Assembly (NCBI RefSeq): GCF_014174495.1
Contig: NZ_JACJHR010000010.1
Coordinates: 83,069-147,068, forward strand
Length of the DNA: 64,000 nt
Origin: Amycolatopsis echigonensis
GTDB taxonomy: Bacteria > Actinomycetota > Actinomycetes > Mycobacteriales > Pseudonocardiaceae
Reading direction: 5' to 3'
A program made the position numbers and the translations under genes. The notes under the pieces were generated by a model. That model did not search any database. It saw nothing but the letters and a program-made list of their open reading frames with translations, and had not been told where the DNA came from. Positions 3,000-24,081 of this stretch are shown here, piece after piece (positions within the stretch are counted from its first letter, which is position 1; every line of letters begins with the position of its first letter).

Positions 3000-3006
3000 T
3001 TACCTC

Positions 3007-4392: not shown

Positions 4393-4423
4393 CCTCCTTC
4401 GCGGCAGCAGAGATTGAGGATTC

Positions 4424-5380: not shown

Positions 5381-5404
5381 CCTTTATCGGCGGAATCCTC
5401 GGGC

Positions 5405-5421
5405 TGTTATCATCGATAACA
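5405..5421 (+). promoter_or_regulatory. Perfect palindromic operator overlapping the tetR start
   Basis: TGTTATC-ATC-GATAACA is a perfect 7-bp inverted repeat with a 3-bp spacer whose last base is the A of the TetR ATG. It also contains TATCAT (5408-5413), a -10-like hexamer 7 bases before the ATG, and there is no ribosome site. A regulator bound here would block its own leaderless promoter. Confidence 0.7.
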
Positions 5422-6092: not shown

Positions 6093-6245
6093 GCCGGGCC
6101 GCACGCGCTTCCGCGTTGCGAGGGGAGAAATCCTCCCAAATCCGTCACCCTCGGTGATTCGGGCTGTGATCCGTCGGGCATCGCTCCGCGAAGCCACTCG
6201 CTCGGGCTAAGGTCTCCTCTCGGAACCGAGGGGGGCCCGTCACCG

Positions 6246-7679
6246 ATGTCGTTCGTTTCACCGCTGTTCTTGTGGTACTTCATGCCCGCGGTGCTGCTCG
6301 CGGTCCTGGTGTGCCCGCGCAGCTGGCGCAACGGCATCGTCGCGGTCGCGAGCCTGCTGTTCTACACGATCGGCGCCGGCCCGTACCTGTTCTTGCTGCT
6401 GCTCTGCATGGCGGTGAACTTCCTGGCCGGACCGGCGCTGGAGCCGAGTCCGTGGGACGTCCGAGGCACGCGCCGGAAACGGATCCTGATCGGCGTCATC
6501 ACGCTCGACGTGCTCGTGCTCGTCATCTGGAAGTACGCCGGTTTCGCGACGCAGCAGATCGCCGCCGTCGCGCACTGGTTCGGCGGCGATCTGGGCGTCG
6601 CGAACATCGTGGTCCCGATCGGCATTTCCTTCTACACCTTCCACCACATCTCCTACGTGGTGGACATCTACCGCGGCGAGCGGCACGCACTGCGCAACCC
6701 GGTGTCGTTCGCCGCGTACATCGCGATGTTCCCGCAGCTGGTGGCGGGTCCCATCGTGCGCTACCGGGAGATCGCCGACCAGCTTCCGCAACGGCGTTCG
6801 CACCGGCTGGACGACATCGCCGCGGGCTTCCCGAGGTTCGCACTGGGCCTGTGCAAGAAGTCGATCATCGCCGACTCGCTCAGCCCGATGGTCGAAGCCT
6901 GCTTCTCGACCCCGTCGAACCAGATGACCTTCACGACGGCCTGGCTCGGCGCGATCGGCTACACCCTGCAGTTGTTCTTCGACTTCTCCGGCTACTCGGA
7001 CATGGCGATCGGACTCGGCCGCATGCTCGGCTTCCGGCTGCCGGAGAACTTCGCGCGCCCGTACTCGTCGGTGACCATCACGGAGTTCTGGCGCCGCTGG
7101 CACATGTCCCTGTCCCGCTGGTTCCGCGACTACGTCTACATCCCACTGGGCGGCAACCGTTCGGGTGCCGGAAAGACGTACCGGAACCTGTCGATCGTCT
7201 TCGTGCTGACGGGTTTCTGGCACGGCGCGCAATGGACGTTCTTGATCTGGGGCTGCTACCACGGGGCCCTGCTGGTCATCGAACGCCGCTTCAACCTCGG
7301 CAACGCCCCAGCCAGCCCAGTCGCCCGCATCGCCCGCCGCCTGCTGACGCTGATCCTGGTGGTGTTCGGCTGGGTCTTCTTCCGCTCCGCCGACCTCGCC
7401 CACGCGCTGTCGATGCTCGGCCACATGCTGATCCCAGACTTCGGCGGCTTGGGTGACGTCGTGGAAAGCGCACTGACGAACCAGCGAATGGTGATCCTGC
7501 TGCTGGCGCTGATCGTGTTCATCCTCCCGGCCCACCCGGTGACGGGTCCGCTGCTGGAATCGTCCCGAAGCCGCGGAGCCACGGCGCTGCGCATCGGGGT
7601 CATGACGGTGGGGCTGGTTTACGCGGCGATCTTGGTGGCTACTGGGACTTTCAGCCCGTTCCTGTACTACCAGTTCTGA
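6246..7679 (+). CDS. MBOAT family O-acyltransferase (AlgI-like)
   Basis: This 477-residue polytopic membrane protein has the AlgI/DltB-type MBOAT signatures: FFDFSGYSDMAIGLGRMLGF, EFWRRWHMSLSRWFRDYVYIPLGG with its histidine, and LTGFWHGAQWTFLIWG with the invariant catalytic His. Such proteins pass acyl (often acetyl) groups across the membrane for modification of extracellular polysaccharides or lipids. A TAAGGT -10-like hexamer lies about 35 bases before the ATG. Its usual partner, an AlgJ/AlgX-type protein, is not adjacent but one is encoded at 25359-26675. The acceptor is unknown. Confidence 0.9.
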   Translation: MSFVSPLFLWYFMPAVLLAVLVCPRSWRNGIVAVASLLFYTIGAGPYLFLLLLCMAVNFLAGPALEPSPWDVRGTRRKRILIGVITLDVLVLVIWKYAGFATQQIAAVAHWFGGDLGVANIVVPIGISFYTFHHISYVVDIYRGERHALRNPVSFAAYIAMFPQLVAGPIVRYREIADQLPQRRSHRLDDIAAGFPRFALGLCKKSIIADSLSPMVEACFSTPSNQMTFTTAWLGAIGYTLQLFFDFSGYSDMAIGLGRMLGFRLPENFARPYSSVTITEFWRRWHMSLSRWFRDYVYIPLGGNRSGAGKTYRNLSIVFVLTGFWHGAQWTFLIWGCYHGALLVIERRFNLGNAPASPVARIARRLLTLILVVFGWVFFRSADLAHALSMLGHMLIPDFGGLGDVVESALTNQRMVILLLALIVFILPAHPVTGPLLESSRSRGATALRIGVMTVGLVYAAILVATGTFSPFLYYQF

Positions 7680-7760
7680 TCGCGGAACCGGCCGAAGGCG
7701 GCTATAGACCAAAAAGCTCCGGCGGATGAAGTTGTGTGCTGGGGTTGATTGGATGGGGTG

Positions 7761-8216
7761 ATGACGGACTCCGTGCAGAAGCTGCGCTTTGATCGTGACG
7801 TGGTGGTGCTGCAGGCAGGCGGCCAGCACCAGGCGAGGCTGCGTGGGTGGCTCGATGGCTACGACGGCCCGCAGCCGATCTACCGGCTTGAATTGCAGAC
7901 TCGCTTGGGGACATACGGCGGTCCTTATACGGCGACTGGACCGGACATGTTCGAGACCCTTGTCCGATTGCGGCGGCAGCTCGAGCCGGAGGGGCTGATG
8001 ATCGCGGTGCAGGGTTCCCGGCGCGACGCGTATCCGAGCGGAATGGCGCGCGACATGGGCGGCGGAGAGCGCATCTACGTCCTGCGTCCGGGGCAGAAGG
8101 CAAGCGCGAACGACCTTGTCGACACGTTCGCCGATGGACCGATCGACCAGGTGGCGACCGTCGACGAGCAGCACAGCTTCTGGGAAGCCTGGTGCACGAG
8201 GGTTTCCGAGTCTTAG
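7761..8216 (+). CDS. Conserved-looking hypothetical protein
   Basis: I do not recognise this 151-residue soluble protein. It has no signal peptide or membrane segment. It is rich in charged residues and ends with a DEQHSFWEAW segment. ATG 7761 is preferred over TTG 7749 because a GGATGGGG string lies just before it. The composition is less G/C-biased than its neighbours, as is the following 265-bp gap and the next gene. This suggests a small accessory insertion between the MBOAT gene and the sugar cluster. Confidence 0.6.
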   Translation: MTDSVQKLRFDRDVVVLQAGGQHQARLRGWLDGYDGPQPIYRLELQTRLGTYGGPYTATGPDMFETLVRLRRQLEPEGLMIAVQGSRRDAYPSGMARDMGGGERIYVLRPGQKASANDLVDTFADGPIDQVATVDEQHSFWEAWCTRVSES

Positions 8217-8452
8217 CGTTCTGGGCACCTGCTGGTGCATCGTCGCGCGGGGCGCATGGCTCTGGTCAAGGCTGAGCCGGGGTTACGGACGCGCCGGTCG
8301 GCTCCTTCGAGCGCTATCGCAAAACTCCGAAGTACGTTCGGAACACAATGGCGGTACAGATCGGACTCAGCGACGTTGGGCGAGCACTGCAGGTACCAGC
8401 GCTTGCGAGGACGATAAGCCTCTTTACCGGCGCAGGCTGCGGGTAAGCTTCG

Positions 8453-8468
8453 TCCGTTGCCTAACGGA
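8453..8468. promoter_or_regulatory. Inverted repeat upstream of a small unknown gene
   Basis: TCCGTT-GCCT-AACGGA is a perfect 6-bp inverted repeat ending 13 bases before the ATG at 8482. A TAAGCT -10-like hexamer is at 8443-8448. It could be an operator or a leader hairpin. Confidence 0.35.
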
Positions 8469-8481
8469 AGGCCCGGAAACG

Positions 8482-8847
8482 ATGACCGACCCTACCGAGC
8501 CGCCAGATCTGGCCTCCACTCCGAACGTGATCCCGTACGTTGACCCGCACGACGGGCCTCGGCGGTTGCTCACGATCGACATTTCCACGCATATTTTCCA
8601 CGCCGGTGCGTACATCCCGTTCGCGGGGATCGACGGTCGGCAATACGTCGTTTCCTGGGGCGCGGTGTCGTTCGAGATTCCCGCCGACCGCAACGTCCAT
8701 GTCAGCGTGCACCTGCAGAGCAACGGCGGAGCCGGGTACACACCGTCGCCGTTCGCGTCGATCATTTTGTACCCGAATCCGTTGCCGCAACGGCTGGCGA
8801 CCCAGTTCGCCCGGGCGGGCATGGGGGCACTTGTCCCGCTGCCGTAA
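8482..8847 (+). CDS. Hypothetical protein
   Basis: The 121-residue product is not recognised. It has no signal or membrane segment. It alternates hydrophobic and polar residues (RLLTIDISTHIF, VSFEIPADRNVHVSVHLQSN), which suggests a beta-sandwich or beta-barrel fold. The frame is open upstream, but ATG 8482 is favoured because it follows a promoter-like region and a GGCCCGGAAACG leader. With the gene at 7761 it forms a lower-GC pocket of unknown role. Confidence 0.5.
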   Translation: MTDPTEPPDLASTPNVIPYVDPHDGPRRLLTIDISTHIFHAGAYIPFAGIDGRQYVVSWGAVSFEIPADRNVHVSVHLQSNGGAGYTPSPFASIILYPNPLPQRLATQFARAGMGALVPLP

Positions 8848-8915
8848 GCCGTTCCCACACCCCAGCCTGGTCAGCGTGAAGCCATGGCGTTGTTCTGCGC
8901 CTCGTTAACTGGGAT

Positions 8916-9566
8916 TCAGCGTTGGCCGTATCCCTTCAGTTTCTCCACCACCTGCTCGATTTCCGTTGGCGGCAACAGAGTCGGAGTACCAGCGGAGCGG
9001 GCCAGCAGCCACACCTGGCAGACCCATTCCAATTGCTGAGCCCGGCTGTACGCGCTCGACAACGAGTCGCCATAGGTGATCGTGCCGTGGTTTGCCAGGA
9101 GGCAGCCTCGGCGGGCGTCCAGGGCTTGCAGCATCGCGTCGGCGAGTTCGGTGGTGCCGTAGGTCGCGTACGGGGCTACTCGGGCCGTGGGGCCGATTGC
9201 CGCGAGCATGTAGTGGATCGGCGGGACTTCGGTGACCAAAGTGGACACTGCGGTGGCGTGCACCGAATGCGTGTGCACGACCGCGTTCACCGGGGCGGAC
9301 TCCGGGTCGGTGGCGCAGGTGTACACGGCCAGGTGCATCGGGAGTTCGCTCGTCGGCTTCAGGGCACCGTCCGCGAGCTTGCCGTCGAGGTCCACGACGG
9401 GGATGTCGGCAGGCGTGAGAGCGGCATAGTCGACACCGGTCGGGGTCACGGCGACCAGGTCGCCTGCCCGCGCTGAAACGTTGCCCGAGGTGCCGACGAC
9501 GAGGCCGTCCGTGGTCAGGCGGCGGGCGTACTCGCAGACTGCGGCACGCTCGTTCTCCAGGATCAT
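8916..9566 (-). CDS. Class II aldolase/adducin family protein (fuculose-phosphate aldolase-like)
   Basis: This 216-residue protein has the class II aldolase features: GTSGNVSAR near residue 27, the catalytic acid in TSELPMH, zinc-binding histidines in VVHTHSVHAT, and a third in LLANHGT. Members cleave 1-phosphorylated ketoses to DHAP plus an aldehyde, or decarboxylate 2-oxo-tetronate 4-phosphates. It is the last gene of the six-gene minus-strand operon, directly after an FGGY kinase, so its substrate is probably that kinase's product. Which substrate cannot be told from sequence. Confidence 0.85.
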   Translation of the reverse strand: MILENERAAVCEYARRLTTDGLVVGTSGNVSARAGDLVAVTPTGVDYAALTPADIPVVDLDGKLADGALKPTSELPMHLAVYTCATDPESAPVNAVVHTHSVHATAVSTLVTEVPPIHYMLAAIGPTARVAPYATYGTTELADAMLQALDARRGCLLANHGTITYGDSLSSAYSRAQQLEWVCQVWLLARSAGTPTLLPPTEIEQVVEKLKGYGQR

Positions 9567-11015
9567 TCACAGCCTCCACAGTCCGCGCGCGGCAGACAGG
9601 GAAGCCTGGTAGTCGGCGTAACCGCGCTCGTAATCAGCCACATTCTCGGGCCGGGCCTCGACTGTTCGCGAGTTCGCGGCCCAGCGATCCCGATCGTACG
9701 GCGTCCCCAGCGCGTCCGCGGCGGTGAGCACGGCACCGCGGGCGCCGACACCGGGATCGCTCGGGATCACGACCGGACGGCCGAGCACGTCGGCGAAAAT
9801 CTGCAGCCATTCGGGCGAGCGGACTCCGCCGCCGCAGGCGTAGAGCTGTCCCGACAGACCGGCTGCTTCGAAGCAATGCCGTGCGGCGTAAGCGATCGAC
9901 TCGCAGAGCGCGCGGACCAAATCGGCCCGGCCGGTTTCCAGACTCAGTCCGGAGAACTGTGCACGCGCTCCGGCATCGACGAAGGGCGCACGTTCGCCCG
10001 ATACCGAAAGGAACGGCAGTGCGCGTACTCCGCGAGCGCCCGGTTTGCTGCTGGCCAGCAGCGGGTCGATTTGCTCGACGCTGATGCCCAGCAGCTCGCA
10101 GACCCAGTCGATACCAGCAGTGCCGACCATCGCGGGCATCGCGTGCAGGTACTCGTGTTCGTCGGGCGTGCACAGGAACATGCCCGCCGGTTCCGCTTCG
10201 GGATCGAAAGCGGGGTCGGTGGTGAGCACCTGGCAGGCAAGCGTGGTCCCGGCGGTGAGGATGCCGTCGCCCGGTTTCCGTACGCCAGCGCCGATCGCAC
10301 TGGCCGGCAGGTCGAACGGTCCCGCGGTGACCGGCAATCCCACTGGCAACCCGAGCAATGCGGCACCGCGCCGGTCGAGCCGGAACACCGACTTCGCCGG
10401 AGCTGGTTTCGCGAAGAGCGACCGGCGATGCCCCAGCCCGCAGGCTTCGATCGCGCCGTCGTCGTAGCTGCGGGTGGCCGGGTTCAGGAACGGCAGCGAC
10501 GCGTCCGAAACGTCGACCGTGATCTCGCCGGTGAGCCGCTGCAACACCGCGTCCACACAGTATCCGGCCACCGCGGCGCGGTCGAGGACCTCGGGCTCAT
10601 GGGTGTCCAAATAGGACATGATGGCCGCGGTGCAGCCGGGGAACATGCCAGAACCGGTGCGGCGGAAGACTTCCGTGGTCACGCCGTCGGCCTGCCATTT
10701 CGCCAGCACGGTGTTCGCCCGGCCGTCGAGCCACGAGATGGCCGGATGCACCGCGTTGCCTGCTTCGTCGCGGAGCCAGAGCCCGTCGCCCTGTCCGGTC
10801 AACGCCAGCGCGGACACCGGCTCGGGCAGCGCGGCCGCGACCTCGCGCACGACCGTCGCGACCGTGCCGGCGACCTGGTCGAGATCCTGCTCGACCCGGC
10901 CGCCCGGAAGGTGGTGCACTTCGGACGGCGTGCACGCGCTCGCGATGGAGCTGCCGTCGTCGTCGAACACCACGGCCTTGGTGAGCGACGTCCCGATGTC
11001 GACCCCGACAATCAC
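9567..11015 (-). CDS. FGGY-family carbohydrate kinase
   Basis: The 482-residue protein has the two-domain FGGY layout: VGVDIGTSLTKAVVFD (phosphate loop 1) at the N-terminus, LALTGQGDGLWL, a central ITAGPFDLPASAIGAG region, and a C-terminal ACGGGVRSPEWLQIFADVLGRPV segment typical of xylulokinase and relatives. It should phosphorylate a sugar, polyol or sugar acid using ATP. Its start overlaps the stop of the dehydrogenase gene upstream (ATGA), and the aldolase gene follows directly. It is a distant paralogue of the kinase at 17855-19294, so the cluster carries two different FGGY activities. Confidence 0.9.
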   Translation of the reverse strand: MIVGVDIGTSLTKAVVFDDDGSSIASACTPSEVHHLPGGRVEQDLDQVAGTVATVVREVAAALPEPVSALALTGQGDGLWLRDEAGNAVHPAISWLDGRANTVLAKWQADGVTTEVFRRTGSGMFPGCTAAIMSYLDTHEPEVLDRAAVAGYCVDAVLQRLTGEITVDVSDASLPFLNPATRSYDDGAIEACGLGHRRSLFAKPAPAKSVFRLDRRGAALLGLPVGLPVTAGPFDLPASAIGAGVRKPGDGILTAGTTLACQVLTTDPAFDPEAEPAGMFLCTPDEHEYLHAMPAMVGTAGIDWVCELLGISVEQIDPLLASSKPGARGVRALPFLSVSGERAPFVDAGARAQFSGLSLETGRADLVRALCESIAYAARHCFEAAGLSGQLYACGGGVRSPEWLQIFADVLGRPVVIPSDPGVGARGAVLTAADALGTPYDRDRWAANSRTVEARPENVADYERGYADYQASLSAARGLWRL

Positions 11016-12091
11016 GGCCGTCGCTCCAGCACCTCGGGATTCGCGACGTTGGCCAGCTGCTCGCCGCGGGCGTACCGGCCGACCTCCGCGGCGACGATCG
11101 CCGCCGCTCGCTCGGCCGTCTGCCTGCTCGCGCCGGCGAGATGCGGCGTCGCGATCACGTTGGGCGCATCGCGCAGCGCCCAGTCCGCCGGCGGCGGCTC
11201 GACGTCGTACACGTCGAGGGCGAGCGCGCCGAGCCGACCGGAGCGCAGGGCCTCGGGCAGTGGCGCGTAGTCGAGCAGGCCGCCGCGAGCAGTGTTCACG
11301 AGGACCGCACCCTCCGGCAGGAGAGCGAGTTTGCTCGCGTCGATGAGGTGCCGGGTTTCTTCGGTGAGCCGCGCGTGCAAGCTCACGACTCGGCTCTGCC
11401 GGAGCAGCTCGTCAAGCTCGACGAGCCGCGCGCCATCGGCTGCTACCGCGGCACGGTCGGCATAAGGGTCAGCCACCAGGACGTTCGCCCCGAACGCGAC
11501 GAGCACCTTGGTGACCCGGGACCCGATCGCGCCGTACCCGACGAGTCCGACCGTGGTGCCGTCCAGCTCCAGTCCGGCCTGGTCGTAGGCGTAGTAGTCG
11601 CCGCGCCAGGTTCCGGCGAGCAGTTCGGCCGAGGAAGTCGAGATCCGCCGCATCGCGGCGAGGATCATGCCTACGGCGAACTCGGCCGCCGCGCCCGCGT
11701 TGCGTCCCGGCGCGTAGGTGACGGCGACTCCTGCCTCGGTGGCGGCAGTCAGGTCGACGTTCACCGGCCCGCCCCGGCACACCGACACGAGCTTGAGCGC
11801 CGGCGCGGCGGCGAAGACCTTCTTGGTGAACGGAGCCATCTGCGTGACGACGGCCTCGGCACCGGCGAGTGCCTCGATCACCTGGTCCTCGGTACCGCTG
11901 GCCTCCAGCACGTTGCCGACCGGCCCGAACGGCTCGACCGGCCACGGCAGCGTCAGCTCGGCGACCTCGTGGTCGCCGCCGAGCTCCGCGCGGACGGCTC
12001 CGGCCAGCAGGCCGGGGCTGACGAAGTGGTCTCCCGCAGCGAGAATGTGCAACTCTGCTCCCTCACTCGCTCTGTGCCGATTGTGCGCCAC
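11012..12091 (-). CDS. D-isomer-specific 2-hydroxyacid dehydrogenase family protein
   Basis: The 359-residue NAD(P)-dependent oxidoreductase has the Rossmann motif GLVGYGAIG, the substrate Arg in NTARGG, the Glu in DVYDVEPPP and the catalytic His in IATPHLAGAS. The family oxidises or reduces 2-hydroxy acids, including phosphorylated ones such as 3-phosphoglycerate and 4-phosphoerythronate. GTG 12091 is given as the start; a TTG at 12052 with GGGAG upstream is an alternative. It is the fourth gene of the operon, between RpiB and an FGGY kinase. This suggests that the pathway includes a sugar-acid step. Confidence 0.85.
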   Translation of the reverse strand: MAHNRHRASEGAELHILAAGDHFVSPGLLAGAVRAELGGDHEVAELTLPWPVEPFGPVGNVLEASGTEDQVIEALAGAEAVVTQMAPFTKKVFAAAPALKLVSVCRGGPVNVDLTAATEAGVAVTYAPGRNAGAAAEFAVGMILAAMRRISTSSAELLAGTWRGDYYAYDQAGLELDGTTVGLVGYGAIGSRVTKVLVAFGANVLVADPYADRAAVAADGARLVELDELLRQSRVVSLHARLTEETRHLIDASKLALLPEGAVLVNTARGGLLDYAPLPEALRSGRLGALALDVYDVEPPPADWALRDAPNVIATPHLAGASRQTAERAAAIVAAEVGRYARGEQLANVANPEVLERRP

Positions 12092-12106
12092 GACGGACGC
12101 CTTTGG

Positions 12107-12562
12107 TCAGTGGGCGTTCTCGTACTCGGTGATGTGCGCGACCTTGGTCGCGCTCGCCGACGCCGGGTCGAAGCGGTACCCGACCCATTCGGCCACGATC
12201 TTCTTCGCCACCTCAGGGCCGATCGCACGCGCCCCGAACGTGATCACCTGGCAGTCGTTCGATTTGATCGACCGCTCGGCGGAGTACGAATCGTGCGCGA
12301 CCGTCGCCCGCACACCGGGCACCTTGTTCGCCGAGATCGCCATGCCGATACCGGTGCCGCAGACCAGGACGCCGCGGTCCGCCTCGCCGCGAGCGATCGC
12401 TTCCGCCGCGGCGAGCCCCAGCAACGGGTACGCCCGGTCATCCGCCGCGTCCGGCACGCCGAGGTCGGTCACCTCGGTGACTCGTTCGTCGGCCCGCAGC
12501 AGGTCACGCAGCTGATTCTTCAGTTCGACCCCGGCGTTGTCCGCCGCCACCACGATGCGCAT
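12107..12562 (-). CDS. RpiB/LacAB-type sugar-phosphate isomerase
   Basis: The 151-residue protein has the RpiB active site: Cys68 in VLVCGTGIGMAISANK and His90 in VAHDSYSAERS. The usual DHAG motif reads DNAG (Asn9), unlike classical ribose-5-phosphate isomerase B. The SAERSIKSND and FDPASASATKV segments resemble isomerases of tetritol pathways (erythrulose 4-phosphate to erythrose 4-phosphate), as I recall them. The start overlaps the DhaKL stop by one base. Being next to a DhaK-type kinase supports a tetrulose-phosphate substrate, but ribose 5-phosphate or an allose/galactose phosphate cannot be excluded. Confidence 0.8.
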   Translation of the reverse strand: MRIVVAADNAGVELKNQLRDLLRADERVTEVTDLGVPDAADDRAYPLLGLAAAEAIARGEADRGVLVCGTGIGMAISANKVPGVRATVAHDSYSAERSIKSNDCQVITFGARAIGPEVAKKIVAEWVGYRFDPASASATKVAHITEYENAH

Positions 12563-14247
12563 CAGTCCGCGCTCCTTTCCAGCTCCTCGCCGACAGCCGT
12601 GACCAGCAGCGAGAACGACACCGCACCCGGGTCGGAATGACCCTCGCTCCGTTGCGCGAGCCGCGCCGCGCGTCCCTTCGCCGGACGCAAATGCGCAGTC
12701 TCCTGCGCGGCTACGACCGCGGCTCCAGCGGCCTTCCGCCATGCCTGCACTACGTCCGAACCCGCCTGCTCCCGCAGCGTGGCCCGGAACGGCTCGATCG
12801 CGTCGAGCATCGTCTTGTCGCCCAGTTCGGCCTTGCCCAGCTCGCAGAACGCGCGAACCGCACCGTCAACCGCGTCGGCGAGCATCGCGGTGGTGATGTC
12901 CTCGGCTGCGGCACCGCTCAGCCCGGCACCGGTTTCCGCCAGCAGTACGCCGTACAGCGCGCCCGAAGCACCACCCGCCGCGTCAGCGAACGCCGTCCCG
13001 GCAGCCAGCAGCGCACCGGAGACAGTTTCCGGTTCACGCCGCGCGGCCGCGACGGCGGCGCGCATCCCGCGGGTCATGCCGAGCCCGTGGTCTCCGTCCG
13101 CGGCTACCGCGTCGAGCCTGCCCAGCTCCGCCTCGTTTTCCTCGATGCTGCGCAGGGCCGCGGTGAGAACCCGGTCGACGACGCTGGTCCCCGGAGCCTC
13201 CTCGGTCAGCAGTTCGTCCACTGTGGACTCGAGAGCGACCGTGGTCAGCTCGGCGCCGGTGGTGCGGTAACCCGGGGTGTCGCACGGCGCGGCGTACAGC
13301 TCGGCCAATTCGTCGTCCAGCACCAGGATCGACAGCGAAACCCCGGCCATGTCGAGCGACGTGACGAACTCCCCGACCTCGGAATGCACTGGGCTGAGCC
13401 CGGCCTGCGCCAGCCGTTCGTGCACGCGGGTGTAGGTGACGAACATTTCCTCGTACTTGGTGCGGCCGAGCCCGTTCACCAGCACGACCACCCGGCCGTC
13501 CCCCTCCGGCAGCTCCGGCAGGAGACCGTCGACCAGTTCGTCCGCCAACTCCGCCGCGGACAACCGGCCCACCGTGCGCACGCCCGGTTCACCGTGAATT
13601 CCGAGGCCCAGCTCCATTTCCTGGTCCGCGACAGTGAACAGGGGCGCGTCCGCACCAGGCAGCGTGCAGCCGCCGAACGCGACACCGAACGTCCGCGTGC
13701 GAGCGTTCGCCTTCGCCGCGACCTCGTGCACCTCGTCGAGGTTGTAACCGCGCTCCGCCGCCGCCCCCGCGATCTTGAAGACCAGGAAGTCGCCCGCGAC
13801 GCCGCGGCGCCGCTCCGGTTCGGTCGCCGGGCCGCTCGCGATGTCGTCGGTGACCAGGATGGTGCGGCTGGGGATGCCTTCGGCGGCGAGCCTGCGGGCC
13901 GCGAGTCCGAAGTGGAGCACGTCGCCTTGGTAATTGCCGAAGCCGAAGAGGACCCCGGCTCCATTGTCCGCGGCCCGCGCCGTGCGGTAGACCTGCTCGG
14001 CACTCGGGCTCGTGAACACATCGCCGACGACCGCGCCGTCCGCCAGGCCAGGCCCGACGAGGCCCGCGAACGCCGGGTAGTGGCCGCACCCGCCGCCGAT
14101 CACGACCGCGACCTTCGGGTTCGCCGGAGCGTCGCGGCGAACGACGCCGTAAGCATCCGGCACCTTCTGGACCGTGCGGCCGTACGCGGTGACGAACCCG
14201 TCCAGCCATTGCCGCTTGAACGTGTCCGGAGAACCCAAGGTGGTCAT
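12562..14247 (-). CDS. Dihydroxyacetone kinase family protein (DhaK-DhaL fusion)
   Basis: The 561-residue product joins a DhaK domain (about 1-330, with IGGGCGHYPAF, FTSPSAEQVY, GNYQGDVLHF and the GIHGEPGV histidine) to a DhaL ATP-binding domain (about 360-561, with AADGDHGLGMTRGM). Fusions of this kind use ATP and phosphorylate dihydroxyacetone, glyceraldehyde or erythrulose. The adjacent RpiB-type isomerase makes D- or L-erythrulose kinase plausible. It lies 3 bases after the HAD gene, so it belongs to the same operon. Confidence 0.9.
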   Translation of the reverse strand: MTTLGSPDTFKRQWLDGFVTAYGRTVQKVPDAYGVVRRDAPANPKVAVVIGGGCGHYPAFAGLVGPGLADGAVVGDVFTSPSAEQVYRTARAADNGAGVLFGFGNYQGDVLHFGLAARRLAAEGIPSRTILVTDDIASGPATEPERRRGVAGDFLVFKIAGAAAERGYNLDEVHEVAAKANARTRTFGVAFGGCTLPGADAPLFTVADQEMELGLGIHGEPGVRTVGRLSAAELADELVDGLLPELPEGDGRVVVLVNGLGRTKYEEMFVTYTRVHERLAQAGLSPVHSEVGEFVTSLDMAGVSLSILVLDDELAELYAAPCDTPGYRTTGAELTTVALESTVDELLTEEAPGTSVVDRVLTAALRSIEENEAELGRLDAVAADGDHGLGMTRGMRAAVAAARREPETVSGALLAAGTAFADAAGGASGALYGVLLAETGAGLSGAAAEDITTAMLADAVDGAVRAFCELGKAELGDKTMLDAIEPFRATLREQAGSDVVQAWRKAAGAAVVAAQETAHLRPAKGRAARLAQRSEGHSDPGAVSFSLLVTAVGEELERSAD

Positions 14248-14250
14248 GAT

Positions 14251-14934
14251 TCAGTCCCTCGCAGCCACCGGCTCGCCGGCCAGATAGGCCAGGAGCTTCA
14301 GTCGGACGTCGTCATTGCTCTCGGCCACCGCGCTGGCCAGTTGCAGCGCGTCCGGCTTCGGCGGGTACGTCGGGTTGGGCAGCGCGATCACGGTGAGCCC
14401 GGCCGCGGCCGCCGCCCGGATGCCGTTGCTGGAGTCCTCGACCCCGAGGCATTCGCTGCCCGATTTGCCGAGCCGGGCCGCCGCCTCCAGGTACACGTCC
14501 GGGTTCGGCTTGCCCCGCGCGACCTCGGCACTGGACACCGTCGCGGTGAACTCACCGGTGAGCTGGTGCTTTTCGAGCACCGCGTCGATCACCCGGCGGG
14601 CCGCCGACGACGCGAGCGCGACCGGGACCCGTTCGCTGACCTCGCGCACCATCGCGCCCGCGCCGGGGAGCAACGGCGCTTCGCCCGCGTCGATCGAGGC
14701 GATCATGCCGTCGACCACCGCGCGTTCCACCTCGTCCGCCTGGTCCGGCACCCCGCACCGGCGGGCGAGATAGCCAGCCCATTCGGGGGCGCTCATGCCC
14801 TGCACCGAGGCCGTGTCCTCCGCCGTCCACTCGACCTGGTGGCGAGCGGCGAAAGCGACCCAGTTCTCCTCCCAGAGGTGTTCACTTTCCACTAGGACAC
14901 CGTCGAGGTCGAACACCACCGCGTCGAGCGTCAT
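14251..14934 (-). CDS. HAD-superfamily sugar phosphatase / phosphoglucomutase-like protein
   Basis: The 227-residue protein has VVFDLDGVLVESE (nucleophile and general acid Asp), a helical cap domain, LASSAARRV, KPNPDVYLEAA and LGVEDSSNGIRAAAAAG. This is the beta-phosphoglucomutase-like subgroup that dephosphorylates sugar and polyol phosphates. It is the first gene of the minus-strand operon, 102 bases from the divergent plus-strand operon. It may remove toxic or dead-end phosphates, but its substrate is not shown by sequence. Confidence 0.85.
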   Translation of the reverse strand: MTLDAVVFDLDGVLVESEHLWEENWVAFAARHQVEWTAEDTASVQGMSAPEWAGYLARRCGVPDQADEVERAVVDGMIASIDAGEAPLLPGAGAMVREVSERVPVALASSAARRVIDAVLEKHQLTGEFTATVSSAEVARGKPNPDVYLEAAARLGKSGSECLGVEDSSNGIRAAAAAGLTVIALPNPTYPPKPDALQLASAVAESNDDVRLKLLAYLAGEPVAARD

Positions 14935-14964
14935 CCACCAGATCCCTTCAGAGAGCGAGCCCGT

Positions 14965-15023
14965 TTCACACGAGCAATGTTAAGTTAACAGCGACGATGA
15001 GAAGTTCGCAAGGGTGTTCACAC
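14965..15023. promoter_or_regulatory. Divergent operator region of the carbohydrate cluster
   Basis: This stretch between the two operons holds TTCACAC at 14965-14971 and again at 15017-15023, and a 13-bp palindrome TGTTAAGTTAACA at 14978-14990. The same TTCACAC heptamer recurs at 16480-16486 before the MFS gene. These are good candidates for binding by the DeoR regulator encoded in the cluster; the link is inferred. Confidence 0.5.
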
Positions 15024-15036
15024 AAGGAGGGCACGA

Positions 15037-15648
15037 GTGGGCGCACGGCTGCTGCTGGCCAGGCACGGGCAGACCGAATGGCACGCGGAGAACCGCTACG
15101 CGGGCACCAGCGAGGTAGCGCTGACCGAGGAGGGGATCCGGCAGGCGGAGGCGCTGGCCGCGTACGCCCGTCGGGTGAAACCGGACGCGCTGTTCTGTTC
15201 GCCGCAGCGACGCGCCCGGCGCACGATCGAACCGGCGGCCGAGGCACTGGAACTGGTCCCGGAAATCGTTCCTGACCTGCGGGAAACCCATTTCGGAATC
15301 GCAGAGGGCCGCACCCGCGACGAGGTGCGCGAGACTGATCCCGAGGCGGTCGAACGCTTCCTCGCCGATCCGATCTCCGGCGCGTTCCCCGGTGCCGACG
15401 ATCCGGCCGAAGCGGCCGAGCGCGGGGCTCGCGCGATCCGGGCCATCGCCGCCGCGACCAGCGGAACGGCCCTGGTCGTCGCACACAACACGCTGCTGCG
15501 GCTCACGCTCTGCCAGCTGCTCGGCATCCCGCTGTCCCGCTACCGCAGCGTGTTTCCCCGCCTGGACAACGCGGCCGTCACCGAACTGGAGGTGAGCGGT
15601 GACCGAACTGCCCTGGTGCGCTTCAACCTCCCAGTGGAACCGCGATAA
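15037..15648 (+). CDS. Histidine phosphatase family protein
   Basis: The 203-residue protein has the phosphoglycerate-mutase/phosphatase motif LLLARHGQTEWH with its phospho-accepting His, CSPQRRARRT, and the second catalytic His in LVVAHNTLLRL. GTG 15037 follows an AAGGAGGG ribosome site. It opens the plus-strand half of the sugar cluster. A role in dephosphorylating a pathway intermediate is likely, alongside the HAD enzyme of the opposite operon. Cofactor-dependent mutase activity is less likely at this length. Confidence 0.85.
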   Translation: MGARLLLARHGQTEWHAENRYAGTSEVALTEEGIRQAEALAAYARRVKPDALFCSPQRRARRTIEPAAEALELVPEIVPDLRETHFGIAEGRTRDEVRETDPEAVERFLADPISGAFPGADDPAEAAERGARAIRAIAAATSGTALVVAHNTLLRLTLCQLLGIPLSRYRSVFPRLDNAAVTELEVSGDRTALVRFNLPVEPR

Positions 15649-15655
15649 TCACGGC

Positions 15656-16450
15656 ATGTCGAGCGAAAAGCCTGCCGCCCACCCCCGCGAGAACCGTCAG
15701 CAGCGGCTGACCGACCACGTGTTCCAGCAGGGTTCGGCGACCATCGGCGAGCTCGTCGACCTGCTCGGCGTCAGCATGATGACGGTGCACCGGGACATCG
15801 ACGAACTGTCCCGGCGCGGCCTGGTCCGGAAGTACCGCGGCGGAGTCTCGGCGATGCCGTCGACGGTGTTCGAGAGCAACGCCGAATACCGGATGAACGC
15901 GCACGTCGACGCCAAACGGGTGATCGCGATGCACGCGGTGGAACAGGTCGAACCGGGCATGTCGGTGCTGCTCGACGATTCCACGAGCGCGCTCGCGCTG
16001 GCCAGGCTCCTGGTCGACGTGACGCCGCTGACCGTGGCCACGAACTACCTCGCCGCGATCGACGTGCTGAAGAACGTGCACGAACTGCGGCTGATCTGCA
16101 TCGGCGGCGACTACTCGTCCACCCACGATTCGTTCCTCGGCATGCAGAGCATCGAGTCGATCGAGCGGCTCTCGGTGGACATCGCGTTCGTGTCCACCTC
16201 GGCGATGAGCGCTTCGATGACCTTCCACCAGGAGCCCGAGATCGTGATGATCAAACGGGCCATGCTGGCCAGCGCGCGGCACAAGGTGCTGCTGATGGAC
16301 CACAGCAAGATGAAGCGCACGGCACTGCACCGGCTCGCGCCGCTGGACGACTACGACCTGCTCATCGTGGACGAGGACGTCGATCCGCACTACGTCGACG
16401 AGCTGCGCAGCCGGGTCGAGGTGCAGGTCGCCGAAGACCCTGAGAACTGA
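15656..16450 (+). CDS. DeoR family transcriptional regulator
   Basis: The 264-residue protein has an N-terminal DeoR helix-turn-helix (RQQRLTDHVFQQGSATIGELVDLLGVSMMTVHRDIDEL... about residues 12-65). The DeoR C-terminal sugar-phosphate sensor follows, with DDSTSALALARLL, GGDYSSTHDSFLG and LLMDHSKMKRTAL. ATG 15656 is preferred to an in-frame GTG 57 bases upstream, because homology starts at the HTH and the upstream part lies inside the phosphatase gene. It likely represses both operons of the cluster and is released by a phosphorylated intermediate. Confidence 0.9.
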   Translation: MSSEKPAAHPRENRQQRLTDHVFQQGSATIGELVDLLGVSMMTVHRDIDELSRRGLVRKYRGGVSAMPSTVFESNAEYRMNAHVDAKRVIAMHAVEQVEPGMSVLLDDSTSALALARLLVDVTPLTVATNYLAAIDVLKNVHELRLICIGGDYSSTHDSFLGMQSIESIERLSVDIAFVSTSAMSASMTFHQEPEIVMIKRAMLASARHKVLLMDHSKMKRTALHRLAPLDDYDLLIVDEDVDPHYVDELRSRVEVQVAEDPEN

Positions 16451-16479
16451 TCGACTTAATAACACTCTTGCGTGCGAAG

Positions 16480-16486
16480 TTCACAC
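16480..16486 (+). promoter_or_regulatory. Third TTCACAC site, upstream of the MFS transporter
   Basis: This heptamer matches the two in the divergent region at 14965 and 15017 and lies 40 bases before the transporter ATG. It is a candidate second binding region for the DeoR regulator. Confidence 0.4.
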
Positions 16487-16526
16487 GGTCCATGATACGT
16501 TCGATCTCGACGTCATGGAGGCGTGT

Positions 16527-17858
16527 ATGAACGAGTCGGCAACAGCGGAGTTGCCCAAGTCGGGCTTCGGGCGCTTGCTCACGAAATGGGGGCTGCCCGC
16601 GCCCCTGTTCCTCGGGTATGTCGGACTGCTCCTGTTCATGATCGGCGACGGAGTGGAGTCCGGTTTCATCGCGCCGTATATGGCGGGCAACGGCGCGGGC
16701 ACGGAAATCAAAGCTTCGTACGTGATCACCGTGTACGGCGTCGCCGTGATGCTGGCGTCGTGGCTCTCCGGTGCGCTGTCCGAGCTGTGGGGACCGCGGC
16801 GGGTGATGCTCGTCGGCCTGGTCATCTGGCTGGTGTTCGACGCGTTGTTCCTGACGCTCGGGCTCGCCGGCGAGAACTACGCGGCGATGCTGATCTGCTA
16901 CGGCATCCGCGGATTCGGCTATCCGATGTTCGCGTTCGGGTTCCTGGTGTGGATCACCGCGGTGGCCCCGGTCGCCCGGCTGGGCGCGGCGGTCGGCTGG
17001 TTCTACTTCGCCTTCACCGGCGGCCTGCCCACGCTCGGCGCGCTCGTCGCGAGCTTCACCAATCCCCTGTTCGGCCACTACGGCACCCTGTGGGTCGCGG
17101 TCGTGCTGCTCGGCGTCGGCGGGCTCGTGGCGGTGCTCGGCGTCCGGCAGCGCACGGGATTCCGCAGGCTCGCGCCGCCTGACGTGAAACCGGTGCAGAG
17201 CCTGGTTTCCAGTGTCTCGATCGCGTGGAAGAAGCCGCGGGTCGGCGTCGGCATGATCGTGCGGATCATCAACACCGCGCCCGAATTCGGCATGTTGGTG
17301 TTCTTCCCGACGATCTTCATCTCCCAGATCGGCTTCGGCGAGAGCCGCTGGCTGCTGCTCGTGTCGGTGATCTACGGGACGAACATCTTCTTCAACCTGA
17401 TCTTCGGCGTGCTGAGCGACCGGATCGGCTGGCGCACCACGATTTTCTGGTTCGGCGCGATCGGCTGCGCGATCTCGATCCTGCTGCTGTACTTCGTGCC
17501 GGTCGCGATGGGCTCGCAGTACTACTGGCTCGCGCTGATCGTCGGCGCGCTCTACGGCGCGACGCTCGCCGGGTTCGTGCCGATCTCCGCGCTGCTGCCG
17601 TCGCTGGCTCCGGAACACAAGGGCGGCGCGATGGCTCTGCTCAACCTCGGCGCGGGCGCTGCGGCATTCGTCGGGCCGGCGATCGTGTCGCTGTTCCTCG
17701 GACCGGCCGGTGCCGCCGGCGTGGTCATCATCTTCGCCGCGCTGTACCTGGTCGCCGCGGTGCTGGTGCGGTTCCTGAAGCTGCCGGAGCAAACCGAGAA
17801 AGCGCTCGCGACCGACGGCAGTTTGCAGGATGTCGAAGAGAGGGTCAGCACGGCGTGA
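16527..17858 (+). CDS. MFS transporter, polyol permease (RbtT/DalT-like)
   Basis: The 443-residue protein has 12 predicted membrane spans. It carries recognisable similarity to ribitol and D-arabitol permeases: GYVGLLLFMIGDG near the start, YGIRGFGYPMFAF, RIINTAPEFGM, and PEHKGGAMALLNLGAG in the second half. ATG 16527 is chosen over ATG 16515 because GGAGG lies 5-9 bases upstream. It probably imports the polyol or sugar on which the cluster acts. The FGGY kinase downstream overlaps it by 4 bases, so uptake and phosphorylation are coupled in expression. Confidence 0.85.
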   Translation: MNESATAELPKSGFGRLLTKWGLPAPLFLGYVGLLLFMIGDGVESGFIAPYMAGNGAGTEIKASYVITVYGVAVMLASWLSGALSELWGPRRVMLVGLVIWLVFDALFLTLGLAGENYAAMLICYGIRGFGYPMFAFGFLVWITAVAPVARLGAAVGWFYFAFTGGLPTLGALVASFTNPLFGHYGTLWVAVVLLGVGGLVAVLGVRQRTGFRRLAPPDVKPVQSLVSSVSIAWKKPRVGVGMIVRIINTAPEFGMLVFFPTIFISQIGFGESRWLLLVSVIYGTNIFFNLIFGVLSDRIGWRTTIFWFGAIGCAISILLLYFVPVAMGSQYYWLALIVGALYGATLAGFVPISALLPSLAPEHKGGAMALLNLGAGAAAFVGPAIVSLFLGPAGAAGVVIIFAALYLVAAVLVRFLKLPEQTEKALATDGSLQDVEERVSTA

Positions 17859-19294
17859 ACGAGCAGGTCTCGGTCGGCATCGACGTCGCCACCGCGGGGG
17901 TTCGCGCCTTCGCGGTGCGCGGCGGCTCGGTCCTCGCCACCGCATCGGCGTCGCTGCCGGCGCCGGTGCGCGCGGGCGGTGGCCGCAGCGAACAGGATCC
18001 GTCGGCGTGGTGGCCGGCGGTCGGTTCGGTGCTGAGCGAGGTCACTGCCGCGCTGCCCGGACGTGGCACGGAAGTCTCGGCGGTGGCGATCGCGGCGACG
18101 TCCGGAACGATCGTCGGAGTCGACGCCGCGGGCGAACCGGTGACGCCCGCGTTGATGTACGACGACCGGCGCGGCGCGGATTACAACGCGAAAGCCGCGG
18201 AACTCGGCGCCGGACGCTGGCGGAACCTGGGTTCGGGCGTCTCGCCGACCGCGGCACTCGGCCGGATCGCCTGGCTGGCCGAGCACACCGAGGCGGTCAG
18301 TGTCCGGCACACGCCGGAGATGATCGCGGCGAAACTGACCGGACATCCGGTCGCGGCGGATTGGTCGCACGCACTCAAAAGCGGTTACGACCCGTTGGCC
18401 GGGGAATGGCCGTCCGAGGTGTTCGCCGGTTTGGGCGTGCCGGACGGGATGTTGCCGCCGGTGGTCGCGCCGACGAGCGCGCTGGGTGAGATTTCGGTGC
18501 CGGTCGCCGGGTTGCCTGCTGGATGTCTCGTGGTGGCGGGCATGACGGACGGGTGCGCGGGGCAGCTGGCCGCGGGCGCGGTCGAACCGGGGCGGTTCGT
18601 GGGGATTCTCGGGACCACGTATGTGCTGAAGGGCGTCACGGAGTCGCTGGTGCCCGATCCCACCGGAGTGATGTACAGCCACCGGCATCCAGACGGGTGG
18701 TGGCTGCCAGGCGGCGCGTCGAACACCGGTGGTGAGTCCGTTTCGGACAGTCCACGGCTGGCGGAGCTGGATGCCGCCGCTGCTGCCCGCGGCCCGGCCG
18801 AGGTCGTGGCTTTCCCGTTGCGGCGCAAGGGCGAACGGTTTCCCTTCGCGCACGGTGACGCGGAAGGTTTCGTCCTCGGCACCCCAGCCGACGAGGTCGA
18901 ATTGCATCGGGCTCGGCTGGAGGGAGTCGCCTTCCTGGAACGGCTAGCCCTGGACCACCTGCGACGGCTGGGTGTTTCGGTCAGCGAACCGCTCCTCGCG
19001 GCGGGTGGCGGAAGCAAGAGTCCTTTATGGACTCAGATCCGGGCTACCGTGAGCGGTCTAGGACTGCAGGTGGCACCGCAGGCAGAAACGGGATACGGCG
19101 CGGCACTGCTCGCGGCGGCAGGGTGTACGCCGGGTGGGCTGAGTGCGGTGTGCGAGGGAATGCCGATGGGGTCGCTCGTCGAGCCGTCGCCCGGTGAGGC
19201 AGCGGCGATGATGGCTTCGTACCAACGGTTTTGCTGTGAGCTGCGGGACCGCGGCTGGATCGACGACGAGCTGTTCGCAGTGACAGCAGGGTGA
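17855..19294 (+). CDS. FGGY-family carbohydrate kinase (second copy)
   Basis: The 479-residue kinase begins VSVGIDVATAGVRAFAV, with the FGGY phosphate loop slightly divergent. It contains VAIAATSGTIVGVDAAG, a GMTDGCAGQLAAGAV central motif, and a C-terminal LLAAGGGSKSPLWTQIRATVSG signature. GTG 17855 overlaps the transporter stop. It differs clearly from the kinase at 9567-11015, so the two should not be redundant. As the gene coupled to the permease it is the best candidate for the first phosphorylation step after uptake. Confidence 0.88.
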   Translation: MNEQVSVGIDVATAGVRAFAVRGGSVLATASASLPAPVRAGGGRSEQDPSAWWPAVGSVLSEVTAALPGRGTEVSAVAIAATSGTIVGVDAAGEPVTPALMYDDRRGADYNAKAAELGAGRWRNLGSGVSPTAALGRIAWLAEHTEAVSVRHTPEMIAAKLTGHPVAADWSHALKSGYDPLAGEWPSEVFAGLGVPDGMLPPVVAPTSALGEISVPVAGLPAGCLVVAGMTDGCAGQLAAGAVEPGRFVGILGTTYVLKGVTESLVPDPTGVMYSHRHPDGWWLPGGASNTGGESVSDSPRLAELDAAAAARGPAEVVAFPLRRKGERFPFAHGDAEGFVLGTPADEVELHRARLEGVAFLERLALDHLRRLGVSVSEPLLAAGGGSKSPLWTQIRATVSGLGLQVAPQAETGYGAALLAAAGCTPGGLSAVCEGMPMGSLVEPSPGEAAAMMASYQRFCCELRDRGWIDDELFAVTAG

Positions 19295-22736: not shown

Positions 22737-22779
22737 GGCGCGGGTTACCGTTCCGGTGAGCGACACGGAGGGGACACGC

Positions 22780-23994: not shown

Positions 23995-24081
23995 GCGCGG
24001 CTTCGAGGGCGGCGGTGGGGACGACGCGGAGCGACCGCGCACGCGATACGGTTTCCTTCCGGAGCGGGGGAGGGAGACCCG

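What the first reader, a model, noticed from the sequence alone, without database searches (positions are those of the whole stretch)
8916..19294. Ten-gene polyol or sugar-acid catabolic system of unknown substrate
Two divergent operons combine a polyol-type permease, two different FGGY kinases, a DhaKL kinase, an RpiB-type isomerase, a 2-hydroxyacid dehydrogenase, a class II aldolase, two phosphatases and a DeoR regulator. I know no described pathway with this exact set. No polyol dehydrogenase is present, so the first step may be direct phosphorylation or use an enzyme encoded elsewhere.
Basis: partly seen in the sequence, partly recalled or inferred. Interest (0 to 1): 0.75.

Follow-up and report, generated by a model that had tools for sequence, protein, structure and literature searches.

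The report
Phosphate-swapping sugar-alcohol gene island
Ten neighbouring genes in an Amycolatopsis-like soil bacterium, found in varying combinations in many related bacteria, are likely used to eat small sugar alcohols such as ribitol and erythritol, and are predicted to do so by adding a phosphate, taking it off and putting it back on the other end.

Summary
The ten genes are real and the coordinates are right. In 66 loci with enough flank, found by the 2-hydroxyacid dehydrogenase (HADH), an erythritol-kinase-type FGGY kinase is present in 65, and at least one of two kinase-phosphatase modules in 65: second FGGY kinase + phosphatase, or DhaKL + RpiB + HAD phosphatase. The second FGGY kinase shares its locus with a histidine phosphatase in 48 of 51 and with another HAD phosphatase in the other 3; DhaKL, RpiB and HAD are all present (44) or all absent (22). 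A kinase-baited recount shows the same rule with some exceptions. A 13-bp palindrome in the divergent promoter, found once in the 9.66-Mb genome, is the likely DeoR operator. Six of the ten proteins have counterparts in rhizobial erythritol/ribitol/L-arabitol loci, whose EryA phosphorylates the polyol first, so no polyol dehydrogenase is needed at the start. Best reading: alditol phosphorylated, oxidised, dephosphorylated and rephosphorylated at the other end, entering the pentose phosphate pathway. Comparison supports the kinase-phosphatase pairing; substrates and the role of HADH are inferred. New variant of a known kind, testable.

The parts
8916..9566 (-). ALD: class II aldolase (FucA / ribulose-1-phosphate aldolase type); optional member of the island
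   Evidence: PF00596 E 5e-50; NF053831 and PRK06833 tie at about 206 bits, both below cut-off; 38-39% to the FucA-like genes of the S. meliloti and Shinella loci; in 30 of 66 HADH-baited loci
9567..11015 (-). KA: FGGY kinase of the EryA (erythritol kinase) type, predicted alditol kinase
   Evidence: PF00370/PF02782; some relatives named erythritol kinase by JGI/UniRef/NCBI, most only FGGY kinase; QGDG motif shared with rhizobial EryA; 33% to S. fredii EryA
11012..12091 (-). HADH: D-2-hydroxyacid dehydrogenase family protein, counterpart of rhizobial RbtA (name assigned by gene order); predicted alditol-phosphate dehydrogenase
   Evidence: PF02826 E 1e-54; 44-45% to S. fredii gene, best hit of that gene in the own genome, next by score 38%; within 5 kb of KA in 68 of 78 KA-baited loci
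12107..12562 (-). RPIB: RpiB/LacAB-type isomerase, predicted D-erythrulose-4-phosphate isomerase
   Evidence: PF02502; TIGR02133 176 bits over cut-off 168, DerI model NF051858 165 bits below cut-off 240; 48% to S. fredii ery RpiB; own genome has three other RpiB-family genes
12562..14247 (-). DHAKL: Dak1-Dak2 kinase, predicted ketose (D-erythrulose) kinase
   Evidence: PF02733 E 4e-115, PF02734; with RPIB and HAD in 44 of 44 HADH-baited and 26 of 26 KA-baited loci that hold it
14251..14934 (-). HAD: haloacid-dehalogenase-type phosphatase
   Evidence: PF00702 E 5e-30; near hexitol phosphatase / beta-phosphoglucomutase models, below their cut-offs
14978..14990 (.). 13-bp palindrome TGTTAAGTTAACA in the divergent promoter, predicted DeoR operator
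   Evidence: only exact match in the genome; in all 28 compared HAD-HISP intergenic regions; with up to 2 mismatches 117 sites beside island genes against 1 elsewhere, in 79 of 128 related loci; 11 permuted-palindrome controls 0-6 loci
15037..15648 (+). HISP: histidine phosphatase superfamily protein, predicted sugar-phosphate phosphatase
   Evidence: PF00300 E 2e-53; in the locus with KB in 48 of 51
15656..16450 (+). DEOR: DeoR-family regulator (alternative start 15599)
   Evidence: PF00455, PF08220; 42% to S. fredii EryR
16515..17858 (+). MFS: polyol permease of the RbtT/DalT/CsbX subfamily
   Evidence: TIGR00897 537 bits over cut-off 375
17855..19294 (+). KB: FGGY kinase resembling the D-ribulose kinase SePSK, counterpart of rhizobial RbtB (name assigned by gene order); predicted ketose kinase
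   Evidence: PDB 5htr/5htn E about 1e-43; SePSK catalytic D8, T11, D221 and ligand S72 conserved, S222 is Gly; best hit of the S. fredii FGGY kinase in the own genome, 36% against 28-29%

Best explanation
The ten genes are a conserved, modular island that is likely a sugar-alcohol (ribitol and erythritol) catabolic system in which an EryA-type kinase would phosphorylate the imported alditol first and the phosphate would then be moved to the other end of the molecule. Proposed steps. (1) The RbtT-type permease imports ribitol or erythritol (inferred from family). (2) KA makes the alditol-1-phosphate (inferred: EryA type; S. meliloti EryA is published to serve erythritol, ribitol and L-arabitol). 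(3) HADH oxidises C2 to the ketose-1-phosphate, D-ribulose-1-P or D-erythrulose-1-P (inferred, the weakest step). (4) A phosphatase, HISP or HAD, frees the ketose (inferred from the pairing with a second kinase). (5) A second kinase puts the phosphate on the other end: KB on D-ribulose giving D-ribulose-5-P, DHAKL on D-erythrulose giving D-erythrulose-4-P, which RPIB turns into D-erythrose-4-P (inferred). Both products enter the pentose phosphate pathway. ALD may cleave a ketose-1-phosphate as a side branch. DeoR controls both operons from the palindrome at 14978-14990 (predicted). This would replace the isomerase steps of the rhizobial/Brucella pathway.
For: Module logic: in 66 full-context HADH-baited loci DHAKL, RPIB and HAD are together in 44 and all absent in 22; KB (51 loci) has HISP in 48, and in the 3 others an unrelated HAD phosphatase beside it; 65 of 66 hold at least one module (Pfam of that HAD). 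In 78 KA-baited loci KB has HISP within 6 kb in 47 of 61, the other HAD in 7. KA has the QGDG motif of rhizobial EryA, absent from KB and five other own-genome FGGY kinases. Counterparts in the S. fredii locus: KA-EryA 33%, HADH 44%, KB 34%, DEOR-EryR 42%, RPIB 48% (best-hit tests); ALD 38-39% to S. meliloti and Shinella. That locus also has a HAD phosphatase directly after the KB-like kinase. Published: EryA of S. meliloti also serves adonitol and L-arabitol; lalA-rbtABC serve these but not erythritol (PMC3599248 passages). KB resembles D-ribulose kinase SePSK. Two relatives (G051, G951) carry an Mpt-like ABC transporter, 39-48%. Operator.
Against: No activity or growth data. HADH and a GlpD/EryB-type dehydrogenase co-occur in G051, G951 and G066 and in the S. 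meliloti, S. fredii and Rubrobacter loci, so HADH is not simply the substitute for EryB. Published genetics ties rbtABC to pentitols only, yet HADH is kept in loci with the DHAKL module and no KB (14 of 66). Exceptions to the module rule in the KA-baited set: KB without HISP or the second HAD in 7 of 61 (6 at the end of the fetched stretch; L050 is a true exception, it has only the DHAKL-module HAD); HAD without DHAKL in L058, L059, L220; RPIB without DHAKL in L060, L213 and on a 3.9-kb contig (L223); neither KB nor DHAKL in 8 of 78, several on short contigs. ALD goes with DHAKL in all 30 HADH-baited loci that have it and is in none of the 21 with KB only, which the ribulose-1-phosphate aldolase idea does not predict; in the KA-baited set 5 of 14 ALD lack DHAKL, two of them beside KB and HISP. 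KA is only 33% identical to EryA, deep tree supports are poor (0.42, 0.16) and an own-genome FGGY paralogue scores nearly as well (160 against 189 bits). The own genome has an unlinked GlpD 50% identical to the G951 EryB-like protein. I know of no 2-hydroxyacid dehydrogenase acting on a polyol phosphate (recalled).
Confidence: 0.45

Rival explanations
1. Same kinase-first polyol route, but the alditol phosphate is oxidised by an unlinked GlpD-type flavoprotein, and HADH does another, probably pentitol-specific, redox step.
For: Own genome holds GlpD homologues at C179:8692-10263 (50% to the G951 EryB-like protein, close to an FGGY gene at C179:11360-12112) and C10 (45%). In the three genomes with an EryB-like gene near KA, HADH is also present. 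S. meliloti carries both, and lalA-rbtABC are described as serving pentitols, not erythritol.
Against: No GlpD-type gene within 5 kb of KA in 142 of 145 distinct loci, 135 of which have HADH there (partly circular, the 80 loci were found with HADH). HADH is kept in loci with the DHAKL module and no KB.
Confidence: 0.3
2. The phosphatases and HADH are metabolite-repair enzymes that clear toxic side products such as 4-phosphoerythronate, and KB and DHAKL act on imported ketoses.
For: HADH matches PdxB-type 4-phosphoerythronate dehydrogenase models at 131 and 82 bits, far below cut-offs and below the phosphoglycerate dehydrogenase model at 221; each kinase module brings a phosphatase, as a repair function would also predict. 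The toxicity of 4-phosphoerythronate is recalled.
Against: HADH accompanies KA in 68 of 78 KA-baited loci, more than expected for an accessory repair gene; this reading leaves the polyol-to-ketose step without a linked enzyme.
Confidence: 0.13
3. The substrate is a C4-C5 sugar acid: KA phosphorylates it, HADH oxidises C2 and ALD decarboxylates or cleaves the product.
For: HADH family acts on 2-hydroxyacids; ALD shows 110 bits to the 3-oxo-tetronate-4-phosphate decarboxylase model (cut-off 250); in Shinella and Paracoccus the KA-HADH-ALD triad has TRAP or tripartite-tricarboxylate transporter genes a few genes downstream, though ABC transporter genes stand upstream.
Against: No DUF1537 acid-sugar kinase; permease is of the polyol RbtT subfamily; 36 of 66 loci lack ALD; DhaKL, RpiB and KB have no place.
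Confidence: 0.1

Closest known systems
Erythritol/adonitol/L-arabitol locus of Sinorhizobium meliloti and S. fredii (eryA-rbtA-fucA1-eryB-lalA-rbtB-rbtC-eryC with eryR-tpiB-rpiB and mptABCDE; gene-to-name mapping by order, inferred)
   Same: EryA-type kinase, RbtA-like 2-hydroxyacid dehydrogenase, FucA-like aldolase (S. meliloti), RbtB-like FGGY kinase followed by a phosphatase, EryR-like DeoR regulator, RpiB
   Different: No EryB, EryC, TpiB, LalA or Mpt transporter; phosphatase is histidine-type instead of HAD; DhaKL and another HAD phosphatase are added; MFS permease
Brucella/Ochrobactrum erythritol pathway EryA-EryB-EryC-EryH-EryI (passages of PMC10190533 and PMC12780249)
   Same: Kinase-first logic (recalled), D-erythrose-4-P as end product, RpiB-type last enzyme (recalled)
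   Different: Brucella uses isomerases (a title in the reference list of PMC12780249 speaks of three new isomerases); here predicted dephosphorylation and rephosphorylation
Mycolicibacterium smegmatis tetritol pathway (cited in PMC12780249; enzyme names DerK/DerI recalled)
   Same: DhaK-type kinase + RpiB-type isomerase pair (recalled)
   Different: There free erythrulose is an intermediate before phosphorylation; here no polyol dehydrogenase in the island and an EryA-type kinase is present
Enterobacterial ribitol operon (ribitol dehydrogenase, D-ribulokinase, polyol permease; mentioned in a passage of PMC12307932)
   Same: RbtT-type permease, D-ribulose-kinase-like KB
   Different: No ribitol dehydrogenase

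Membership tests
Rhizobial ery/rbt polyol locus | EryA-type kinase | tested here: met
   QGDG motif, 33-34% identity, some source names; deep tree support weak
Rhizobial ery/rbt polyol locus | RbtA-like 2-hydroxyacid dehydrogenase next to the kinase | tested here: met
   44-45%, best hit in own genome, next by score 38%
Rhizobial ery/rbt polyol locus | RbtB-like FGGY kinase | tested here: met
   34-36%, best hit in own genome
Rhizobial ery/rbt polyol locus | RbtC-like HAD phosphatase after RbtB | tested here: not met
   The S. fredii protein (HAD) had no match among the ten at E 1e-10; a histidine phosphatase lies in the operon instead
Rhizobial ery/rbt polyol locus | EryB alditol-phosphate dehydrogenase | tested here: not met
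   No GlpD-type domain or match among the ten
Rhizobial ery/rbt polyol locus | EryC and TpiB isomerases, LalA | tested here: not met
   No match among the ten at E 1e-10
Rhizobial ery/rbt polyol locus | EryR-like regulator and RpiB | tested here: met
   42% and 48%
Rhizobial ery/rbt polyol locus | MptABCDE transporter | tested here: not met
   MFS permease instead; Mpt-like ABC present in relatives G051 and G951
Rhizobial ery/rbt polyol locus | Growth on erythritol, ribitol, L-arabitol | not testable with these tools
   A search listing for Amycolatopsis growth data showed nothing usable
M. smegmatis DerK/DerI tetritol pathway | DhaK-type kinase paired with RpiB-type isomerase | tested here: met
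   Every DHAKL-bearing locus counted also has RPIB: 44 of 44 and 26 of 26
M. smegmatis DerK/DerI tetritol pathway | Linked polyol dehydrogenase | tested here: not met
   None among the ten
D-ribulokinase (SePSK type) | Catalytic D8, T11, D221 | tested here: met
   All three conserved in KB; activity not tested
DUF1537 tetronate pathways | DUF1537 kinase | tested here: not met
   Absent from the Pfam hits of all ten

The most novel reading that the evidence does not exclude
Actinomycetes run a kinase-phosphatase-kinase sugar-alcohol pathway: the alditol is phosphorylated, oxidised by a 2-hydroxyacid-dehydrogenase-family enzyme that has become a polyol-phosphate dehydrogenase, stripped of its phosphate by a dedicated phosphatase and rephosphorylated at the other end by a dedicated ketose kinase, with exchangeable C4 (DhaKL-RpiB-HAD) and C5 (FGGY-phosphatase) modules, instead of the isomerases of the Brucella route.
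Probability: 0.28. Interest if true: 0.75.

Novelty: new variant of a known kind. Interest (0 to 1): 0.5.

Why it matters
Erythritol and ribitol are common plant and fungal sugar alcohols (recalled). An FGGY family study placed EryA exclusively in Alphaproteobacteria (PMC3245297 passage), and a study of 21 strains of the actinobacterium Propionibacterium freudenreichii found that all ferment erythritol and adonitol but could not reconstruct the pathways (PMC4437456 passages). This island is a candidate answer to that kind of gap in actinomycetes, with a definite, unusual and testable chemistry; whether P. freudenreichii has it was not shown here. It also offers a role for an unassigned 2-hydroxyacid dehydrogenase subgroup and a ready operator-regulator pair.

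Tried and rejected
Rejected: (1) 'HADH simply replaces EryB'. At 5 kb range it looked mutually exclusive (158 loci: 146 HADH only, 3 EryB-like only, 7 neither, 2 without KA), but HADH was then found about 10 kb away in two of the three EryB-like genomes and on another contig in the third, so I withdrew that argument. (2) A link to serine/glycine metabolism (SHMT and glycine-cleavage genes beside L063, SHMT beside L065, read by eye): two loci only, taken as neighbours. (4) S. meliloti locus-tag guesses gave no papers. (5) yoaC/yoaD literature (listing only) was not followed. (6) Growth phenotypes of Amycolatopsis (listing only): nothing usable.

Dropped before counts: 14 of 80 loci with contig ends too close. 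The 80 loci were found with HADH, so HADH is there by construction; among the 78 KA-baited loci 68 have HADH within 5 kb. The two sets share species, so they are not independent. 11 loci with identical KA were removed for (145 left). The operator count used 128 loci (L068-L147, L211-L258), not L038-L067; these are related genomes, so the sites are not independent, and 49 of 128 have no such site.

The KA-baited recount of the module rule was made last; it added the exceptions told under evidence against and left the odds as they were.

Recalled, not from a call: M. smegmatis and Brucella enzyme roles, stereochemistry of the Ery steps, toxicity of 4-phosphoerythronate.


Full report
What is there. 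The window lies in an unnamed 9.66-Mb genome; the nearest named loci are from Amycolatopsis nivea, A. dendrobii and A. rubida (HADH 97-98%), so the genus is inferred.

Conservation. I compared neighbourhoods found with KA as bait in 249 genomes of the order, 396 of the phylum and, with a KA relative, 394 of the class (stretches; comparison), and with HADH as bait in named species genomes (alignment A1 of 14 sequences). Of the 80 HADH-baited loci 66 had enough flank. In these, KA 65, DEOR 64, KB 51, HISP 48, DHAKL, RPIB and HAD 44 each, ALD 30. All ten families occur together in 21 (20 Amycolatopsis, 1 Qaidamihabitans). In 19 of 20 Streptomyces loci HADH and KA lie with HISP, DEOR and KB but no DHAKL module (6 of the 19 with the permease); Saccharopolyspora has HAD, HADH, KA, DHAKL, RPIB and ALD without KB and HISP (8 of 8); Nocardiopsis has HAD, DHAKL, RPIB, HADH and KA (2 of 2). 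In the phylum-wide sample KA relatives at E 1e-75 or better were found in 9 of 396 genomes, in the class-wide sample in 41 of 394, so the island is widespread but patchy.

The module rule. In the 66, DHAKL, RPIB and HAD are present together in 44 and absent together in 22. KB is accompanied by HISP in 48 of 51; in the three others (Actinopolyspora, Halopolyspora, Halosaccharopolyspora) a different HAD protein (Pfam of its L052 relative) lies beside KB (L102, L107, L123). At least one module is present in 65 of 66; the exception L093 has HADH and DEOR only, with the operator between them. The KA-baited recount (78 loci) gives KB with HISP within 6 kb in 47 of 61, with the second HAD in 7, with neither in 7 (six at the end of the fetched stretch; L050 is a true exception); DHAKL, RPIB and HAD all or none in 72 of 78 (HAD alone in L058, L059, L220; RPIB alone in L060, L213, L223); KB or DHAKL in 70 of 78. 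A phosphatase that travels with a sugar kinase, even when swapped for an unrelated phosphatase, is the strongest hint to mechanism here: the two would cancel out if they acted at the same position, so they most simply act in sequence at different ends. A repair role for the phosphatase is not excluded.

The first kinase. Some KA relatives are named erythritol kinase, most only FGGY kinase. KA shares the motif QGDG with the FGGY kinase beside a glycerol-3-phosphate dehydrogenase in Rhizobium leguminosarum WSM1325 (a listed ery genome in PMC3599248) and with the S. meliloti, Shinella and Paracoccus kinases that are 48-54% identical to it; KB and five other own-genome FGGY kinases lack it. The tree places KA near these, but deep support is weak. 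KA relatives of 46-52% identity share a locus with an EryB-like GlpD protein in L059, L060, L220 and Shinella WSC3-e.

The rhizobial counterpart. S. meliloti L148 and S. fredii NGR234 L157 show a regulator, an ABC transporter, an EryA-type kinase, a HADH homologue, (in S. meliloti a FucA-like aldolase), GlpD, a class II aldolase, an FGGY kinase, a HAD phosphatase, a sugar-phosphate isomerase, DeoR, TIM and RpiB. PMC3599248 (passages seen) lists identity cut-offs in the order MptA, EryD, EryA, RbtA, EryB, LalA, RbtB, RbtC, EryC, and says that NGR234 has all genes but fucA1, that EryA and Mpt also serve adonitol and L-arabitol, that lalA-rbtABC are involved in these pentitols but not erythritol, and that fucA is not necessary. 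By order I equate RbtA with HADH, RbtB with the KB-like kinase and RbtC with the HAD phosphatase; this mapping is mine, as the figure and the 2012 paper were not available. The S. fredii HADH homologue finds the window HADH as best hit in the own genome (45%, next by score 38%) and its FGGY kinase finds KB (36%, others 28-29%). Two actinobacterial relatives, G051 and G951, carry an Mpt-like ABC transporter (39-48%).

Chemistry (inference). EryA-type phosphorylation and C2 oxidation of erythritol and ribitol give, by my stereochemical reasoning, D-erythrulose-1-phosphate and D-ribulose-1-phosphate. Brucella-type organisms reach D-erythrose-4-phosphate in five steps (PMC10190533 and PMC12780249 passages) with isomerases. 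Here a phosphatase and a second kinase would do it: KB resembles D-ribulose kinase SePSK, with its catalytic residues conserved, and DhaK+RpiB resembles the tetrulose kinase/isomerase pair of M. smegmatis (recalled; the pathway is cited in PMC12780249). ALD resembles a haloarchaeal ribulose-1-phosphate aldolase (PMC9700705 passages; model below cut-off), but in the HADH-baited loci it occurs only with DHAKL (30 of 30; KA-baited 9 of 14), so its role is open.

HADH. It is the weakest point. It lies within 5 kb of KA in 68 of 78 KA-baited loci, and none of these 68 has a GlpD-type gene within 5 kb. Of the seven loci with neither gene, L063, L064, L211, L222 and L247 are in genomes with HADH elsewhere; L215 and L216 lie at contig ends. 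But the three genomes with an EryB-like gene near KA keep HADH too (G051 and G951 about 10 kb away; G066 on another contig as KB-HISP-HADH), and the own genome has an unlinked GlpD. HADH as alditol-phosphate dehydrogenase is therefore the most economical, not the proven, reading.

Regulation. TGTTAAGTTAACA at 14978-14990 is the only exact match in the genome, is present in all 28 compared HAD-HISP intergenic regions, and with up to two mismatches stands beside island genes 117 times against once elsewhere in 128 loci (79 loci have a site, 49 none; 11 control palindromes 0-6 loci). The loci are related, so these are not independent events. No sigma-70-like promoter was found in 14800-15200.

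Verdict. A real, modular sugar-alcohol island of Actinomycetota; known in kind, new in composition. In the listings of my searches I saw no paper describing this actinobacterial set; one search listed 20 of 67 papers, none, and the library lacks most subscription journals.

Noticed in passing
L168 (own genome C3), 1293-9265: Second DhaK (50%) + RpiB (60%) pair with an SDR, a TIM-barrel protein, an MFS permease and two transketolase-like halves (the last three by eye): a separate ketose pathway in the same genome.
   Followed up: partly
L060, 7587-13568: EryA-type kinase with EryB-like GlpD, TIM, RpiB and a protein that looks RuBisCO-like by eye: an actinobacterial Brucella-like erythritol set.
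   Followed up: partly
L158 (Rubrobacter radiotolerans plasmid), 1-17286: Large polyol cluster: three FGGY kinases, 2-hydroxyacid dehydrogenase, DhaK-type kinase, two HAD hydrolases, sn-glycerol-1-phosphate dehydrogenase, RpiB, GlpD (annotation).
   Followed up: no
L148, 14584-15102: HAD phosphatase gene not annotated and with a broken frame in this S. meliloti record; an intact copy exists in S. fredii NGR234.
   Followed up: partly
L153 (Shinella WSC3-e plasmid), 1932-11474: KA relative (50%) with GlpD, class II FBP aldolase, an E1/E2 2-oxoacid dehydrogenase-like complex and lipoyl synthase: perhaps a pathway for another polyol.
   Followed up: no
L154 (Cereibacter sphaeroides plasmid), 4219-14104: HADH-aldolase-FGGY kinase with CoA-transferases and an acetolactate-synthase-like gene: an unexplained use of the same triad.
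   Followed up: no
L218 and L219: Phylum-level relatives in which KB and HISP stand with HADH, KA and an aldolase but no DhaKL: the arrangement that a ribulose-1-phosphate aldolase branch would predict.
   Followed up: no
window 21507-25305: Three tandem paralogous membrane proteins of about 410 aa (seen by eye).
   Followed up: no
L065 and L066: KA, KB and HADH with a sugar ABC transporter (permease and ATPase in both, binding protein seen in L065; types by eye) instead of the MFS permease, so the transporter is exchangeable.
   Followed up: no
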